Assembly (NCBI RefSeq): GCF_001675285.1
Contig: NZ_LSGQ01000003.1
Span: 62,001-126,000 of the forward strand
From: Elizabethkingia miricola
GTDB lineage: Bacteria; Bacteroidota; Bacteroidia; Flavobacteriales; Weeksellaceae
Length of the DNA: 64,000 nt
Reading direction: 5' to 3'
Position 1 is the stretch's first letter. Every line of letters starts with the position of its first letter. Below, in pieces: positions 4,261 to 59,812 of this stretch. The notes below the pieces were generated by a model. It worked only from the letters and a program-made list of their open reading frames with translations. It made no database searches and was not told where the DNA came from. A program made the translations under genes and the position numbers.

Positions 4261-4302
4261 AACAACAAAAAACCATTCAATTTCATAGAAATCGAATGGT
4301 TT
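4261..4302 (-). terminator. Intrinsic terminator after rpmF
   Basis: A 15-bp stem (4270-4284 with 4288-4302) has one mismatch and a 3-base loop. On the minus strand it is followed by TTTTTTGTTGTT. It separates the pdxA-DUF177-rpmF unit from accBC. Confidence 0.8.
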
Positions 4303-4330
4303 TTGTATAAATTTCAGAGAAAACCGGGTA

Positions 4331-4534
4331 TTAGTTTTCTTCTGTAGTTTCAACTTGTTTTTCAAGTACAACTTTACCTCTGTAGTAAAGTTTACCTTCA
4401 TGCCAGTGTGCTCTGTGATAAAGGTGAAGTTCTCCAGTTGTAGCGTCTTTAGCTAACTGTGGAGCTACAGCTTTGTAGTGAGTTCTTCTTTTATCTCTTC
4501 TAGTAGCAGACTGTCTTCTTTTAGGATGTGCCAT
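4331..4534 (-). CDS. rpmF: 50S ribosomal protein L32 (cysteine-free form)
   Basis: A 67-residue basic protein beginning [20 protein letters not shown], the characteristic L32 N-terminus. It is a structural component of the large ribosomal subunit. The four cysteines that hold zinc in the C+ form of L32 are missing; His-rich residues ([10 protein letters not shown]) stand in that region, so this is the zinc-independent C- type. It follows DUF177 by 38 bases, the classic yceD-rpmF pairing. The fabH gene that often follows rpmF is not here. Confidence 0.95.
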
Positions 4535-4572
4535 TGTCTGATATTTTTAATATTTTTTAATTCTTGTTTTAG

Positions 4573-5112
4573 TTAATTTTTGCCCTTTAATTTATTAAGT
4601 GCTGCCCATCTTGGATCAATATCACCTTCTTCATTTTCTTCTGCCTGATCCTCTTCAACTTCTTTCGGGCTGTATTGGTCCAGAGCTTCCAAATCTTCTT
4701 CTGTTAAATTAGGAGAAAGTTTCTTCATCGGTATTGCTAATACTACAGCTTCAAATATAAGTTGTGAAATATTGAACTCATATTCATTCTGTGGGATTAC
4801 AATAACCTCTTCATTGCTATCGTCATATTCTTCTCCGAATTTTACCAATACTTTTATATCATTATGTATTGGGTGACTAAATTCTTCATTGCTGATGTCG
4901 CAGGTTAACTGAACTGTTCCTTCAACTTTAATTTCAAATTCTAAAAAAGTTGAGTGTTTGTCTAACTGTGCTTTCACTTCAAGATCAGCCTTGTCAAACT
5001 CTTGTTCAGTATCAAATAAATTAAAGAACTCCTGTTTTACATCAAAAATAAACTCGTGTTTACCGTTTTTTAAACCTGTAAATGCGATATTGTAGTTTCT
5101 GATTTTCTCCAT
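4573..5112 (-). CDS. YceD/DUF177 family protein
   Basis: A DUF177 (YceD) protein of 179 residues when started at the ATG at 5112. A longer frame begins at a TTG (5127) that overlaps a good -7 promoter element, so I prefer the ATG. DUF177 proteins sit upstream of rpmF across bacteria and are linked to 23S rRNA accumulation in plants and E. coli. Seen here are a mixed N-terminal domain with a CDISNEEF segment and a very acidic C-terminus (EDLEALDQ to EENEEGD) ending in DPRWAALNKLKG, typical of the family. It is probably cytosolic and ribosome-assembly related. Confidence 0.85.
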   Translation of the reverse strand: MEKIRNYNIAFTGLKNGKHEFIFDVKQEFFNLFDTEQEFDKADLEVKAQLDKHSTFLEFEIKVEGTVQLTCDISNEEFSHPIHNDIKVLVKFGEEYDDSNEEVIVIPQNEYEFNISQLIFEAVVLAIPMKKLSPNLTEEDLEALDQYSPKEVEEDQAEENEEGDIDPRWAALNKLKGKN

Positions 5113-5124
5113 AAAAATGGTTTG

Positions 5125-5132
5125 CAAAAATA
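5125..5132 (-). promoter_or_regulatory. DUF177-rpmF promoter, -7 element TATTTTTG
   Basis: TATTTTTG on the minus strand matches TAnnTTTG and lies 12 bases before the DUF177 ATG at 5112, implying a very short leader. It would allow DUF177-rpmF transcription independent of pdxA. Confidence 0.5.
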
Positions 5133-5160
5133 AATTAAATAATTGAGATTACAAAGTAAA

Positions 5161-6249
5161 TTATTCATTTTCTTCAGGTAAGTCTTCATCTACTCCGTTG
5201 GCATCGAAGGTTTTCTTCGGCTGTAACTTGTTTTGAAGTAATTCCTGATATTCTCTTCTGTTCTGGAAAATTTTTATTCCGGAAAAAATAGCTTCTTCAA
5301 AAGATTGTGCATCGGCAATATTTTTTCCTGCAATATCATAAGCCGTTCCATGATCAGGTGACGTTCTTATAAAAGGAAGACCAGCACTATAATTTACTCC
5401 TTCTTCATAGGAAATAGTCTTGAATGGAGTAAGTCCTTGGTCATGATACATGGCCAGAACAGCATCGTAGGCTTTGTACTTTTCAGGTTGGAAAAAGCTA
5501 TCTGCAGGGAAAGGTCCAAAAGCCAGAACTCCTTCATCAAATAACTTGTTGATAGCAGGGGTGATAATTTCTATTTCCTCCTGGCCTATGCTGCCGCCAT
5601 CTCCTGCATGTGGGTTTAGTCCTAAGATAGCAATTTTGGGTTTCTGGATACAGAAATCCTCGCGTAATGTCTGATCCAGTGTTCGGACTTGTTTTACAAT
5701 TCTTTCTTTGGTAATCTTAGAAGCAACTTCTGCAACAGGAATATGATGTGTAGATACAGCAACTTTTAAGTCTTCGGTTACCATAAACATCAATGCTTTC
5801 TGCTTGAACTTAGCTTCCAGATATTCAGTATGTCCTGTATAATTAAATCCTTGTTTTAGCATTTCATCCTTATTAATAGGTGCTGTAACCAGAACGTCAA
5901 TTTCACCTTTCATCAGGGCTTCGGTTGCTGCTTCCAGAGACTGAATTGCCAGGGCAGTGGATTCTTCAGTGGGTTTACCAAATTCAATGTTTACATTGTC
6001 TTTCCACAGGTTTAGAATATTAATTTCGCCATGCTTTAGCTGCGATAATTGTTGTATCAGGTGGTAGTTCTGATTGACTTTGAAAACGTTTTTCTGGTAG
6101 GAGAATAGTTTCCCGGAACCAAATATAACCGGAGTGAAAAAATCCAGTATAGATTTTTCTTTCAATGTTTTAATGATGATTTCCGGTCCAATGCCGTTAA
6201 AATCCCCTATAGAGATTCCTACACGTATTTTATGATGCTTAGCGCTCAT
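5161..6249 (-). CDS. pdxA: 4-hydroxythreonine-4-phosphate dehydrogenase
   Basis: A 362-residue NAD-dependent enzyme of the DXP-dependent pyridoxal phosphate pathway, oxidising 4-phosphohydroxy-L-threonine to the unstable amino ketone used by PdxJ. Family marks are GISIGDFNGIGPE (11-23), VTAPINK (121-127), TGHTEYL with metal ligand H140, NPHAGDGG (212-219), MYHDQGLTPFK with ligand H269, and LPFIRTSPDHG (291-301). The length is slightly above the usual 330 because of an acidic C-terminal tail. It starts 43 bases from the divergent ribE, and their promoters interleave. Confidence 0.95.
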   Translation of the reverse strand: MSAKHHKIRVGISIGDFNGIGPEIIIKTLKEKSILDFFTPVIFGSGKLFSYQKNVFKVNQNYHLIQQLSQLKHGEINILNLWKDNVNIEFGKPTEESTALAIQSLEAATEALMKGEIDVLVTAPINKDEMLKQGFNYTGHTEYLEAKFKQKALMFMVTEDLKVAVSTHHIPVAEVASKITKERIVKQVRTLDQTLREDFCIQKPKIAILGLNPHAGDGGSIGQEEIEIITPAINKLFDEGVLAFGPFPADSFFQPEKYKAYDAVLAMYHDQGLTPFKTISYEEGVNYSAGLPFIRTSPDHGTAYDIAGKNIADAQSFEEAIFSGIKIFQNRREYQELLQNKLQPKKTFDANGVDEDLPEENE

Positions 6250-6256
6250 TTTTTGC

Positions 6257-6278
6257 TATCTTTGAAGATACAAATTTA
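6257..6278. promoter_or_regulatory. Overlapping divergent pdxA / ribE promoters
   Basis: TATCTTTG at 6257-6264 (plus, for ribE) and TAAATTTG at 6278-6271 (minus, for pdxA) both fit TAnnTTTG and overlap head to head in the 43-bp gap. The plus element is part of a small palindrome, TATCTT-TG-AAGATA (6257-6270). Each polymerase footprint would cover the other element. Confidence 0.6.
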
Positions 6279-6292
6279 ATATTTTTAAATCA

Positions 6293-6874
6293 ATGTTTAC
6301 GGGAATAATTGAAGCGATAGGAAAAGTAGAAAATATCGTTCATGAAGACGCTAATGTTCACTTTACAATAAATAGCCCTTTTACAGGGGAACTGAAAATA
6401 GATCAGAGCGTTGCTCATAACGGTTGCTGCCTGACTGTAGTAGCGATAAAAGATAGTGAGTATGTTGTAACAGCGATAAAAGAAACGCTGGATGTAACAG
6501 CTTTAGACGAACTGAAAGTTGGGAATCTGGTAAATTTAGAGCGTTGTATGATTATGAATAGTCGTTTAGACGGACATATTGTACAGGGACATGTTGATCA
6601 GACAGGCTATCTGGATACTATAGAAAATCAGGACGGGAGCTATCTGCTTACCTTTAAATACGATGAAAGGGATTTTACAACAGTTAACAAAGGTTCCATT
6701 ACTGTAAATGGTATTAGCCTGACAGTAGTAAACAGCCAGAAAGGTCAGTTTTCTGTAGCGTTGATACCTTATACGTGGGAACATACTAATATGCACCAGT
6801 TAAATATTGGGGATAAGGTGAATTTAGAATTTGATATTATTGGCAAGTATGTTGCCAAGCTTATGAATAAATAA
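6293..6874 (+). CDS. ribE: Riboflavin synthase, alpha subunit
   Basis: A 193-residue protein made of two lumazine-binding barrels. It dismutates two 6,7-dimethyl-8-ribityllumazine molecules into riboflavin and a pyrimidinedione. The invariant N-terminus MFTGIIEAIGKVE is intact. NGCCLTVV and LDGHIVQGHVD fall in or after the first barrel, and VNGISLTVV with IPYTWEHT in the second. The other riboflavin genes are not in the window, and no FMN riboswitch precedes it: the 5' leader is only about 20-25 bases. Confidence 0.95.
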   Translation: MFTGIIEAIGKVENIVHEDANVHFTINSPFTGELKIDQSVAHNGCCLTVVAIKDSEYVVTAIKETLDVTALDELKVGNLVNLERCMIMNSRLDGHIVQGHVDQTGYLDTIENQDGSYLLTFKYDERDFTTVNKGSITVNGISLTVVNSQKGQFSVALIPYTWEHTNMHQLNIGDKVNLEFDIIGKYVAKLMNK

Positions 6875-6877
6875 TAT

Positions 6878-8335
6878 ATGGCTCTAGGTCAGAGAGGAAT
6901 AAGTCTTCAACTTAAAATTTTTTCGGGGTTAATATTAGTGTCTCTGCTATGTGTTGCAGGGACAACTCTTATTTCTTATCTGGTGATCAGAAGAGTGGCA
7001 CAGGTTCAGAATGAAACCTCGCTTCAGAATAAATCTCTGGCACTTACTACAGCATTAGATTACGCAATTGTCCATTCGCATGTTACTAAAGAGAATATTG
7101 CGACCGAACTTCGTTACAAACTGATGGAGATATCGGATATCAATGGACTATTAGATATTATATTATATGACAGTAAAGGAAATTTTCTGGTTTCTAACAG
7201 GGATGCGGCACTGATAAAACAGAAAAGAATCCCTTCGGAAGTACTTAATAAAATTCTGCGTAGTGAAGGCGGAGCACTGGATTTTAGATTTTATGACGAT
7301 AAAAGTAATGCTACAATTACATCTTCATACAGAATCCTTAGGGATGATCCGAGTCTTGATTCCGAACCATTGGCAATTGCTTATTTTCCATCATATTATT
7401 TTAACAATCAATATGTAGATATATTCAATAAGCACCTTCAGTTTATTGTTTTAGTTAATGTGTTTGCAGTGTTGCTAAGTATATTTATCAGCTGGAGAAT
7501 TTCCAAAAATATCACCAAGACTATCACATCAATTTCATCTAAGATAAGCGATGAAGGAAGAGATCTTAAGCCTATAAAGTATTCCAGTAGGGATGAGTTA
7601 AGTGTTCTGGTTAGAGCTTATAACAGAATGATTTATCAGCTTCGGGAGCAGACACAGCTCAAAGCTCAGGTTGAAAGAGAAAAGGCGTGGCGGGAAATGG
7701 CTAAGCAGGTTGCACATGAGGTGAAAAATCCTTTGACTCCTATGAAGTTAACTATTCAGAATTTCGAGAGGAAATTTGATCCTCAGGATCCTGAAATAGA
7801 AAATAAAGTACATAAGATGAGCAAGGTAGTGGTAGAACAGATTGATCTTATTGCAGAAGTTGCCAGTGCATTTTCTGAATTTGCCAAGCTGCCTGAAAAA
7901 GAAGATACTATTCTTAATCTTAACGAGGAGATTAAGAAAATCGTTGATATATTCGATAAGAACGATATTTTTATACATTCAAATAAGGATAATATCATGC
8001 TGAAATTTGATAAAATCTATATCAGCCGTATCATGACGAACCTTATTACCAACGCGCAACAGGCAGGAGTCTACGGAAGAAGGCCTATCATAAATATCGA
8101 TTTGGAGCAATTTAATAAGAAGGTAACCATTAAGGTAGAAGATAATGGAAGTGGAATCGAAAAAGAAAAGCTTGAACAGATTTTTGAACCTAATTTTACA
8201 ACTAAAAGTAGTGGGATGGGGCTTGGGCTTACAATGGTCCGTAAGATGATTGATGAATACAGAGGGACTATATCTGTGAAATCTGAATTCGGAAAAGGAA
8301 CACAGTTTACCATTAGCTTACCAGTCGGAATTTAA
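6878..8335 (+). CDS. Orphan sensor histidine kinase, NtrY-like
   Basis: A 485-residue membrane kinase that follows ribE by 3 bases. TM1 is at about 13-36, then a periplasmic sensor region (about 37-187), TM2 (about 188-206), a HAMP linker (207-260), and the HisKA dimerisation domain with phospho-acceptor H280 in AHEVKNPLTP. The HATPase domain follows, with N-box NLITNAQQAG, G1 VEDNGSGI and G2 GMGLGLTMV. The EVKNPLTP H-box is typical of the NtrY/nitrogen-regulator class. No response regulator is adjacent, so the partner must be encoded elsewhere. What it senses is unknown. Confidence 0.88.
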   Translation: MALGQRGISLQLKIFSGLILVSLLCVAGTTLISYLVIRRVAQVQNETSLQNKSLALTTALDYAIVHSHVTKENIATELRYKLMEISDINGLLDIILYDSKGNFLVSNRDAALIKQKRIPSEVLNKILRSEGGALDFRFYDDKSNATITSSYRILRDDPSLDSEPLAIAYFPSYYFNNQYVDIFNKHLQFIVLVNVFAVLLSIFISWRISKNITKTITSISSKISDEGRDLKPIKYSSRDELSVLVRAYNRMIYQLREQTQLKAQVEREKAWREMAKQVAHEVKNPLTPMKLTIQNFERKFDPQDPEIENKVHKMSKVVVEQIDLIAEVASAFSEFAKLPEKEDTILNLNEEIKKIVDIFDKNDIFIHSNKDNIMLKFDKIYISRIMTNLITNAQQAGVYGRRPIINIDLEQFNKKVTIKVEDNGSGIEKEKLEQIFEPNFTTKSSGMGLGLTMVRKMIDEYRGTISVKSEFGKGTQFTISLPVGI

Positions 8336-56805: not shown

Positions 56806-57579
56806 ATGAGTGAAAAAAAAGGTCTCAATCTTACACTGAAAATTTGGAGACAAAAAAATAATAAAACAAAAGGTCAATTCGAAACCTATAAGATTTCAGA
56901 TGTATCTACAGACAGTTCATTCCTTGAAATGTTAGATATTCTGAATGAAAATTTAATCAACGAAGGAAAAGACCCTATCGCTTTCGATCACGACTGTCGT
57001 GAAGGTATTTGTGGTATGTGTTCTCTATACATTAATGGTAGAGCGCATGGTCCTGATACAGGTATTACTACTTGTCAGTTGCACATGCGTCACTTCAAAG
57101 ATGGTGAAACTATTCATATCGAACCATGGAGAAGTGCTGCTTTTCCAGTGATCAAAGACTTGGTAGTAGACCGTTCTGCATTTGACAGAGTAATGGCTGC
57201 CGGAGGTTTTATTTCTGTAAATACTTCAGGTAGAACAACTGATGCTAACAATATTCCAGTACCAAAAGAAGATGCTGATAAGGCAATGGATGCTGCAGCA
57301 TGTATCGGATGTGGAGCTTGTGTAGCAACTTGTAAAAATGGTTCTGCAATGTTATTTGTAGGAGCTAAAGTTTCTCAGTTTGCATTATTGCCACAAGGTA
57401 GAGTTGAAGCAAAACGTAGAGTACTTCACATGGTAAAACAAATGGACGAAGAAGGATTCGGTAACTGTTCTAATACAGGAGCTTGTGAGGTTGAATGTCC
57501 AAAAGGTATCTCTTTGGAGAATATTGCAAGAATGAACAGAGAATATCTAAGTGCTAACTTTACAACAGCTAATCACTAA
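56806..57579 (+). CDS. sdhB: Succinate dehydrogenase iron-sulfur subunit
   Basis: A 257-residue protein carrying three iron-sulfur clusters. The [2Fe-2S] ligands are C64, C69, C72 and C90 ([15 protein letters not shown]). A ferredoxin-like domain follows with [11 protein letters not shown] (C166, C169, C172, C176) and a second group C221, C227 and C231 for the [3Fe-4S]/[4Fe-4S] pair. It passes electrons from SdhA to the SdhC hemes. A strong terminator follows the gene. Confidence 0.96.
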
Positions 57580-57600: not shown

Positions 57601-57628
57601 AAAAAAGCCGCTAATAAGCGGCTTTTTT
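57601..57628 (+). terminator. Intrinsic terminator after sdhB
   Basis: Perfect 12-bp stem AAAAAAGCCGCT/AGCGGCTTTTTT (57601-57612 with 57617-57628), loop AATA. Confidence 0.9.
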
Positions 57629-57752
57629 ATTTATAAACCTAATCTGTATGTTAATGTTTTAATTATTGAAATGTTAAGTTTTGTATATTTTAATTATTTA
57701 ATATTCAATAATAAATATTTATTTATAAATTAGTATTACCAAATCTAAACAT

Positions 57753-57971
57753 ATGGAAAATAAAAATTTAGAGACCAAATTGAATTTTGGCGGAAAAAAA
57801 TTATCCTCTAAAGAACTGAACAGTATCGTTGGAGGTGGACTTCTAGGTAATATCATTGGAGGTCTTGACAAAGAGTTGAGTAAAATCGAACAGGAACTGA
57901 AAAAGGTTCGTGACGGTATTATTGGTGGTATAGACAAAGTCATAGACGGCGTTATACCTCGTAAGCCTTAA
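57753..57971 (+). CDS. Double-glycine-leader peptide, candidate bacteriocin or signal
   Basis: A 72-residue protein with a bacteriocin-type leader: KLSSKELNSIVGG (16-28) fits the L-S-x-x-E-L-x-x-I-x-G-G consensus cleaved by C39 peptidase domains of ABC exporters. Cleavage after G28 would release a 44-residue core, GLLGNIIGGLDKELSKI onwards, Gly/Ile-rich and amphipathic. The segment IIGGLDK (33-39) is echoed by IIGGIDK (56-62), an internal repeat. The core has no cysteine, so it is not a lanthipeptide and has no disulfide. No transporter, immunity or modification gene is nearby. It stands alone between two terminators. Function is inference from the leader only. Confidence 0.72.
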   Translation: MENKNLETKLNFGGKKLSSKELNSIVGGGLLGNIIGGLDKELSKIEQELKKVRDGIIGGIDKVIDGVIPRKP

Positions 57972-58078
57972 TTTCGTTTTTTACCCATTTTTAATTCAGT
58001 TCCAAGACTGGAGTTACTAAATTAAAACAGCCTTTAGCTGTTGGAGGACATGAACATCTATCATCCTCGTATAAATAT

Positions 58079-58106
58079 AACCGCTGAATTCAGCGGTTTT
58101 TTCTTT
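58079..58106 (+). terminator. Palindromic terminator after the double-glycine peptide gene
   Basis: AACCGCTGAATTCAGCGGTT (58079-58098) is a perfect 20-base palindrome running into TTTTTTCTTT. It ends the peptide transcript about 110 bases after its stop. Confidence 0.85.
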
Positions 58107-58273
58107 GATAACAACGCATAATAATGTTATTTTAAATCCGGAGCTGATTGTTTTAGACAATAATGCTGTATAGAAAAACTTAATTTTAGCCTTAAAGCAC
58201 ATTGTGAAAATAGAAGTAAGCGTTAAATAATATTAAAAGATGACAAAATCAGGGATATATATGGAAAAAAGGT

Positions 58274-58300: not shown

Positions 58301-59812
58301 ATGAAAAAACTATTATTAATAGTATTATGCACTTTATTTATAGTGTCTTGTTCAAACAAAAAGACTGTTGTTATCTCTGGTAAAGTTATTGGAGGTTCAC
58401 CATTGGAAAGGATAGAAATTGTTGATATGTCAGGTGTTGCAACACTGCCTATCGCTAACTTTGGTGTAGATGCACAAGGTAATTTCTCTGATACGATCCA
58501 GATTCCTAAAAATGGTGTATATACACTTTCTTATGGAGGTAACTATGGTACCGTTTATTTAAAAGGTGGAGAGAATGTAAGACTTTCTGGTAACAGCGCG
58601 GCTGGTTTTCCAAAAGTATTTACTGTTGAAGGAGATTCAAAAAACAATGTGTTTTTACAAAAGACACAAACTTATTTAGATAATTATTTTTCTAAAATTC
58701 AGCAAGATATCATCACTCAGGATGAAACTAAATTCATCGATCAATTGAAAAAATTCAGATCAGACTTGAATAAAGAAATGGATAACCTGGCGAAATCTAC
58801 AGGAGCTGACAGTGATTTAGTAAAATGGAAAAAAGATGAACTAGATGTTAACCTTCTTTCTTTCTCTGGAAAATATATAGAGCTTCACGGACAGGTTACA
58901 GGAAAACCTGATTATAAAGCATCTCAGAAGCTAAAAGATTATCAGAAAGAACTGAAAGGAGATGAAGATGCTAAAATCAAAATGTATCCTTCATACAGAG
59001 GTTATATGCTAAGTACTCTTGGTCAGGATTTCCAGGCTTATGCTATGAAAAACCAAAAGCCAGATGGTACTACAACTGAAATGTTCATTAACTATATCAA
59101 GGATAAAAAAGATTATTCTCAATTGGTTAAAGACTACCTGATTTCTTTTGTTGCCGGAATGGATATGCACCCACAACAAGCTAACTCAGAAAAATTAATG
59201 AAGTTATTAAATGATAACATTAAAGATTCTGAAGTTAAAGCAGGATTGGAGAAAGTAGAAAAAGCTGTTTACGGTCTTAAAGTTGGTACAGCTGCACCGT
59301 CAGTAGACTTTATTGATGTGAGTGGTAAAAAAGTACCTTCTTCTTCATTCAACGGAAAGCCTACATTGATCATGTTCTACGCTTCTTGGAATCCATATAT
59401 TGCGGAATCTGTAGTACCAATGCTTAAGGAAGTTACTAATGCTTATAAGAGTAAAGTAAACTTTGTATTCATTGATGTGGATGATAATGCAGCTCAATTT
59501 AAGAAAACAGCTGTAGCAATGTTAAGCGGAACTGAAGGACAGAAACTATATGCAAAAGGAGGTCTTAAATCTGAAATGGCACAAAAATATGCATTATACG
59601 GATTTAAATTGCCAAGCTTTGTAATCTTAGATAAAGATGGTAAAATAGCAAGCAAGAGTTTCATGAGTATGATGGAGCCTGACTTTAAAACTGCTTTAGA
59701 TAAGGTATCCGGAATTACCGGACCAGCTATTGCTCCACCACAAATGCAAATGCAGCCTGCACCCGCACCTGTGGATTCGGCAAAAGTAAAGACAGAAGCG
59801 AAAGCTAAATAA
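58301..59812 (+). CDS. TlpA-like thioredoxin-fold lipoprotein lacking the CxxC motif
   Basis: A 503-residue lipoprotein (signal ends FIVSC, C17). A DUF4369-type beta domain (about 22-110), a helical middle (about 115-325) and a C-terminal thioredoxin fold (about 328-475) are followed by a Pro/Gln/Met-rich tail. The fold is marked by KPTLIMFYASW, VFIDVDDNA and the cis-proline LPSFVILD, but the active site reads W363-N-P-Y-I instead of W-C-x-x-C. No redox chemistry by that site is expected; a chaperone or binding role is more likely. Its stop lies 6 bases before rlmD, so the two may share a transcript. Confidence 0.82.
   Translation: MKKLLLIVLCTLFIVSCSNKKTVVISGKVIGGSPLERIEIVDMSGVATLPIANFGVDAQGNFSDTIQIPKNGVYTLSYGGNYGTVYLKGGENVRLSGNSAAGFPKVFTVEGDSKNNVFLQKTQTYLDNYFSKIQQDIITQDETKFIDQLKKFRSDLNKEMDNLAKSTGADSDLVKWKKDELDVNLLSFSGKYIELHGQVTGKPDYKASQKLKDYQKELKGDEDAKIKMYPSYRGYMLSTLGQDFQAYAMKNQKPDGTTTEMFINYIKDKKDYSQLVKDYLISFVAGMDMHPQQANSEKLMKLLNDNIKDSEVKAGLEKVEKAVYGLKVGTAAPSVDFIDVSGKKVPSSSFNGKPTLIMFYASWNPYIAESVVPMLKEVTNAYKSKVNFVFIDVDDNAAQFKKTAVAMLSGTEGQKLYAKGGLKSEMAQKYALYGFKLPSFVILDKDGKIASKSFMSMMEPDFKTALDKVSGITGPAIAPPQMQMQPAPAPVDSAKVKTEAKAK

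What the first reader, a model, noticed from the sequence alone, without database searches (positions are those of the whole stretch)
57753..57971. Orphan double-glycine-leader peptide: candidate bacteriocin or secreted signal
The 72-residue protein carries a textbook GG leader (L17-S-S-K-E-L-N-S-I-V-G-G28) followed by a 44-residue glycine/isoleucine-rich amphipathic core. Such leaders are cut by C39 domains of peptidase-containing ABC exporters. The gene sits alone between two strong terminators with no exporter, immunity or modification gene in view, so the exporter would have to be encoded elsewhere. Nothing here shows what it does: an antibacterial peptide, a pheromone or a surface-active peptide are all open.
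Basis: partly seen in the sequence, partly recalled or inferred. Interest (0 to 1): 0.75.

Follow-up and report, generated by a model that had tools for sequence, protein, structure and literature searches.

The report
Lone exported-peptide gene in Elizabethkingia
A small, real gene in a group of Elizabethkingia bacteria encodes a peptide with a standard "cut here and export" tag, and the genome carries a matching exporter elsewhere, so it is probably a secreted helical peptide of a common general kind, but what it does outside the cell is not known.

Summary
Window 57753-57971 (+) encodes a 72-residue protein whose leader L17-xxx-E21-L22-xxxx-G27-G28 fits the published consensus of peptidase-containing (C39) ABC exporters exactly. 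It is the best match in its own genome to the NCBI bacteriocin-leader model and scores far above 19,040 shuffled frames. Intact orthologues, also next to sdhB, occur in two related Elizabethkingia genomes under clear purifying selection; a fourth (YR214) has a decayed pseudogene; nothing similar was found in other genera. Two strong terminators flank the gene; no partner gene is nearby. "Orphan" is only locally true: the genome has two C39 exporters, one with HlyD and VKOR/thioredoxin partners and conserved at 98-99% in all four genomes, plus at least 25 scattered GG-leader peptides. Those all contain cysteine; this one has none, and its unrelated core is predicted as one long amphipathic helix. 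Most likely it is an unmodified substrate cut after G28 and exported by the shared exporter. Whether the 44-residue product kills, signals or coats is not shown; a membrane-active antagonist is my leading guess, weakly held. New member of a known kind; modest interest.

The parts
57753..57971 (+). GG-leader peptide gene, 72 aa, stop included
   Evidence: ORF; purifying selection 7 syn: 1 non-syn and 4: 0 against two orthologues
57753..57836 (+). Leader, residues 1-28: 14-residue N-terminal extension plus KKLSSKELNSIVGG; L(-12), E(-8), L(-7), I(-4), G(-2), G(-1)
   Evidence: TIGR01847 top own-genome match; weight matrix 22.4 bits, 0 of 19,040 shuffles; consensus from PMC6959990; predicted helix 19-27
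57837..57968 (+). Core, residues 29-72 (44 aa, no Cys, net charge +1, 4.70 kDa), predicted helix 30-67; internal repeat IIGGLDKEL / IIGGIDKVI 22 residues apart
   Evidence: Composition and hydrophobic moment, 0.0008 of 5,000 shuffles as high; AlphaFold2 block pLDDT 82-94 over residues 31-60; repeat reached by 1 of 1,500 shuffles
57601..57628 (.). Terminator after sdhB, symmetric
   Evidence: 13 bp stem, -17.5 kcal/mol, z -4.2
58079..58103 (.). Terminator after the peptide gene
   Evidence: 8 bp stem and T tract, -12.3 kcal/mol, z -5.4
57629..57752 (+). A+T-rich upstream region that should hold the gene's own promoter; a stretch of it is missing in the decayed YR214 copy
   Evidence: Alignment; no unambiguous TAnnTTTG box found; promoter position inferred from the upstream terminator

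Best explanation
It is a free-standing gene for the precursor of a small secreted peptide. The leader docks on the C39 peptidase domain of an ABC exporter encoded elsewhere on the chromosome, most likely the one at G000:C1:553859 (L011) with its nearby HlyD partner. The exporter cuts after G28 and passes the unmodified 44-residue, cysteine-free core out of the cell. Outside, the core forms one long amphipathic helix and most likely acts on membranes or surfaces, with a narrow-spectrum antagonist of related bacteria as my first guess. Shown: the gene, its selection, the leader match, and the presence and conservation of the exporter. Inferred: cleavage, export and which exporter. Conjecture: the activity. 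The confidence given is for the export route, not for the activity, which I would put at about 0.4 for antagonist.
For: Leader fits L(-12)xxxE(-8)L(-7)xxxxGG (PMC6959990), is the top TIGR01847 match of the genome and beats every shuffle in a matrix trained on this genome's own GG leaders. Two C39 exporters in the genome; the L011 one has C39, ABC membrane and ATPase domains, a nearby HlyD and a VKOR/thioredoxin protein, the peptidase Cys, His and Asp in place (read by eye), GG-leader peptides on both sides, and is 98-99% identical in three close genomes. Purifying selection. Predicted leader helix 19-27, break at GG, core helix 30-67. Little in the core to modify: one Ser, no Thr, no Cys.
Against: No direct evidence of expression, cleavage or export. 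The exporter is unlinked, and the cysteine-rich peptides next to it have a shorter leader (about 15 residues against 28). No immunity gene, low net charge and a near-invariant core do not favour a killing peptide. HMMER's composition correction removes the significance of the short leader match. YR214 keeps the exporter but has lost the peptide.
Confidence: 0.65

Rival explanations
1. Exported by the same route, but the core is a signal or a surface-active or self-assembling peptide, not a killer. The 3-4 spaced hydrophobic residues and the 22-residue repeat would let helices pack together or lie on a surface.
For: No conserved ORF that could be an immunity gene between the terminators; strong conservation of the core, only I35F in three genomes; net charge +1; one strongly amphipathic helix with an internal repeat.
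Against: No receptor or regulator gene nearby; 44 residues is long for a pheromone; restricted to a few close species and lost in one.
Confidence: 0.4
2. Substrate of the second C39 exporter, in the pinensin-like lanthipeptide cluster (L012), rather than of the L011 exporter.
For: That exporter is intact in G000 and G062.
Against: E. occulta has an intact peptide, but none of its three C39 exporters is an orthologue of it (best 38% against it); its Asp position in the peptidase domain seems to read Asn (GNPALG, by eye).
Confidence: 0.1
3. A cytoplasmic small helical protein whose GG-leader likeness is coincidental.
For: Short motif; HMMER composition correction removes the match; helical coiled-coil-like core with weak matches to VASP_tetra and to an engineered protein.
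Against: All consensus positions present and conserved; matrix score beyond 19,040 shuffles; best TIGR01847 match of the genome; genome rich in such leaders.
Confidence: 0.12

Closest known systems
NF047798 leader_Chryseo 'bacteriocin-like protein' peptides of Chryseobacterium and relatives
   Same: Similar leader end (K-[LI]-x-x-x-x-L-x-x-[IV]-x-GG); scattered single genes; same genome
   Different: No NF047798 match; leader 28 instead of about 15-18 residues; core without Cys (theirs have 4 or more) and unrelated
Class II bacteriocins (leader model TIGR01847) and class II microcins of Enterobacterales
   Same: GG leader for a C39 exporter; apparently unmodified, glycine-rich core
   Different: No linked immunity, exporter or HlyD gene; no core similarity; low charge
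TIGR04149 / PF14406 Bacteroidota RiPP precursors
   Same: Leader ending LSxxExxxxxGG with an N-terminal extension
   Different: Only E 0.5-0.8, far under the cut-offs; own-genome match 11.5 bits; no radical-SAM gene recognised nearby
Lactococcin G-beta / enterocin 1071B (NF038034)
   Same: Weak match, E 0.0068, over residues 17-36, i.e. mostly leader
   Different: 16.6 bits against a cut-off of 37; no partner peptide gene; core not similar

Membership tests
Substrate of a peptidase-containing (C39) ABC exporter | Leader L(-12)xxxE(-8)L(-7)xxxxG(-2)G(-1) | tested here: met
   L17, E21, L22, G27, G28; consensus from PMC6959990
Substrate of a peptidase-containing (C39) ABC exporter | A C39 exporter with adaptor in the same genome | tested here: met
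Substrate of a peptidase-containing (C39) ABC exporter | Cleavage after GG and export | not testable with these tools
   Needs biochemistry or mass spectrometry
Class II microcin / bacteriocin | Linked immunity gene | tested here: not met
   Between the terminators only short ORFs that do not stay open across species; neighbours are sdhB and a thioredoxin-like lipoprotein
Class II microcin / bacteriocin | Antibacterial activity | not testable with these tools
NF047798 bacteriocin-like protein | Score above 23.5 bits | tested here: not met
   Not among the 44 own-genome matches at E up to 10, nor
TIGR01847 bacteriocin leader domain | Score above 15.7 bits | tested here: inconclusive
   16.6 bits in the six-frame search but 14.7 on the whole protein: borderline
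TIGR04149 rSAM-modified RiPP | Score above 25 bits | tested here: not met
   10.3-11.5 bits

The most novel reading that the evidence does not exclude
A so far unnamed family of cysteine-free, single-helix secreted peptides in this Elizabethkingia group that shares the exporter of the many cysteine-rich GG peptides and does something other than they do, for instance self-assembly on surfaces or signalling without an immunity gene.
Probability: 0.35. Interest if true: 0.5.

Novelty: new member of a known kind. Interest (0 to 1): 0.3.

Why it matters
This genome alone carries dozens of GG-leader peptides, none of which has a tested function that I could find. This one is a clean, conserved case with a plain, probably unmodified core, so it can be synthesised and tested directly, and its decay in a neighbour makes loss visible. 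By itself it does not change any understanding of peptide export.

Tried and rejected
Homologues of the whole peptide in plasmids, phages, viral contigs and PHROGs: none. Core alone in 396 genomes of the order: only weak matches inside larger or stop-broken frames. Rfam: nothing near a gathering score; the weak matches sit on the terminators. PDB: one engineered protein, E 1.7e-4 but with no stretch passing on its own, taken as helix composition. Graspetide reading not favoured: no Thr, one Ser in the core; ATP-grasp enzymes were not searched genome-wide. A structure search was left out because a single helix matches anything. The opposite-strand ORF 57719-57943 is dismissed because changes between species are synonymous in the + frame. 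A hidden immunity gene downstream was looked for: the 61-aa minus-strand ORF 58017-58202 is frame-shifted in G062, G046 and YR214, and no other frame is kept. Literature searches for Elizabethkingia bacteriocins and Bacteroidota GG leaders gave nothing on this peptide.

Full report
What is there. The ORF 57753-57971 (+) encodes MENKNLETKLNFGGKKLSSKELNSIVGG / GLLGNIIGGLDKELSKIEQELKKVRDGIIGGIDKVIDGVIPRKP (the slash marks the predicted cut). It lies between sdhB (56806-57579) and a thioredoxin-like lipoprotein gene (58301-59812; Pfam Thioredoxin_8/AhpC-TSA). Two strong hairpin terminators bound it: 57601-57628 and 58079-58103. So it should be transcribed from its own promoter in 57629-57752; I found no unambiguous Bacteroidota -7 box.

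Whether it is a gene. The same gene occurs next to sdhB in G062 (100% protein identity) and in E. occulta G4070 = G046 (99%) and, as a decayed copy, in Elizabethkingia sp. YR214 = G074. Against E. occulta there are 7 synonymous and 1 non-synonymous differences (P 7e-4 with a neutral synonymous fraction of 0.27), against G062 4 and 0 (P 0.005). The coding part is more conserved (96.3-98.2%) than upstream (90.0-92.5%) and downstream (86.9-93.8%) DNA. In YR214 the ATG is ATA, the leader is frame-shifted, the GG pair reads VY in the remaining frame, and a stretch of the upstream region is missing. So the gene is kept in three genomes and lost in one. It was not found in the two other genomes of the genus held (G023 and G084; in G023 the interval from sdhB to the lipoprotein gene is about 1.4 kb and holds no such ORF), nor in the rest of 197 genomes of the family, nor, core alone, in 396 of the order. 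E. anophelis and E. meningoseptica could not be checked one by one; the scan of genome contigs found only E. occulta and YR214.

Whether the leader is real. The published consensus for C39 exporter substrates is L(-12)xxxE(-8)L(-7)xxxxG(-2)G(-1), with positions -10 to -4 forming a helix and position -4 giving specificity (PMC6959990). Here L17, E21, L22, I25, G27 and G28 fall on these positions, and AlphaFold2 gives a helix at 19-27, a break at the GG and a helix at 30-67 (mean pLDDT 74.8; only three near-identical sequences, so this is a weak prediction). In a six-frame search of the own genome with TIGR01847 it is the best match, 16.6 bits against the cut-off 15.7. A matrix of 20 other GG leaders from the genome gives 22.4 bits, within the range of those leaders; none of 19,040 shuffled frames reaches it. 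The HMMER version of that test depends on the composition correction, which I report as a caveat.

The exporter. The genome has two C39 ABC exporters. Exporter 1 (L011:8041-10242, G000:C1) has C39, ABC membrane and ATPase domains, a HlyD gene nearby (5878-7182) and a VKOR/thioredoxin protein (4301-5815), with Cys-rich GG peptides on both sides. The peptidase Cys and His and an Asp are present. It is 98-99% identical in G062, G046 and G074. Exporter 2 (L012:9290-11593) belongs to a lanthipeptide cluster with LanB-like N- and C-parts and LanC and a pinensin-type precursor. It is present in G062, cut short in the frame seen in G074, and has no orthologue among the three exporters of E. occulta. 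Since E. occulta keeps an intact peptide, exporter 1 is the better candidate.

The context that changes the reading. At least 25 other small genes with a GG-type leader are scattered over this genome; 15 places pass the cut-off of NF047798 'bacteriocin-like protein'. A GG-leader gene standing alone is therefore the rule here. What sets this one apart is that every other one I read has cysteines (4 or more, or 2 in the pinensin-type precursor), whereas this core has none, its leader is nearly twice as long as most, and its core resembles nothing found.

The core. It has 44 residues, net charge +1, pI about 8.3, 8 Gly and 8 Ile; the hydrophobic moment over the first 40 residues is 0.438 against a shuffle mean of 0.158 (a fraction of 0.0008 of 5,000 shuffles as high). 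An internal repeat, IIGGLDKEL and IIGGIDKVI, 22 residues apart, is reached by 1 of 1,500 shuffles. Hydrophobic residues follow a 3-4 spacing (31, 35, 38, 42, 45, 49, 52, 56, 60, 63, 67). With no Cys or Thr and one Ser it offers little for lanthionine, sactipeptide or ester-type graspetide chemistry. This suits an unmodified, membrane- or surface-active or self-packing helix. No downstream frame that could encode an immunity protein stays open across the four genomes.

Verdict. Gene and leader: confirmed. Export by a C39 exporter: probable (about 0.8), by exporter 1 in particular about 0.65. Antagonist against signal or surface role: close to even; I lean to a membrane-active antagonist because of the class II-like leader and patchy distribution, and against it stand the missing immunity gene, low charge and constant core. 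It is a new member of a known kind, of modest interest.

Noticed in passing
L011:4301-10633 (G000:C1) and scattered loci L016-L026, L059-L092: At least 25 cysteine-containing GG-leader 'bacteriocin-like' peptides in one genome, several around a C39 exporter with HlyD and a VKOR/thioredoxin protein, which suggests oxidative folding of the exported peptides.
   Followed up: partly
L012:9290-17324 (G000:C27): Pinensin-type lanthipeptide cluster: C39 exporter, split LanB, LanC and a precursor matching NF038180; the exporter's Asp position in the peptidase domain seems to read Asn, and the exporter frame is short in G074 (L111).
   Followed up: partly
L006:1483-1698 (Elizabethkingia sp. YR214): Pseudogene of the target peptide: start codon lost, leader frame-shifted, GG replaced, upstream stretch deleted, while the L011-type exporter stays intact.
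   Followed up: yes
L033:2200-3770 (G023): The interval from sdhB to the lipoprotein gene is about 1.4 kb here, without the peptide and without any clear gene.
   Followed up: partly
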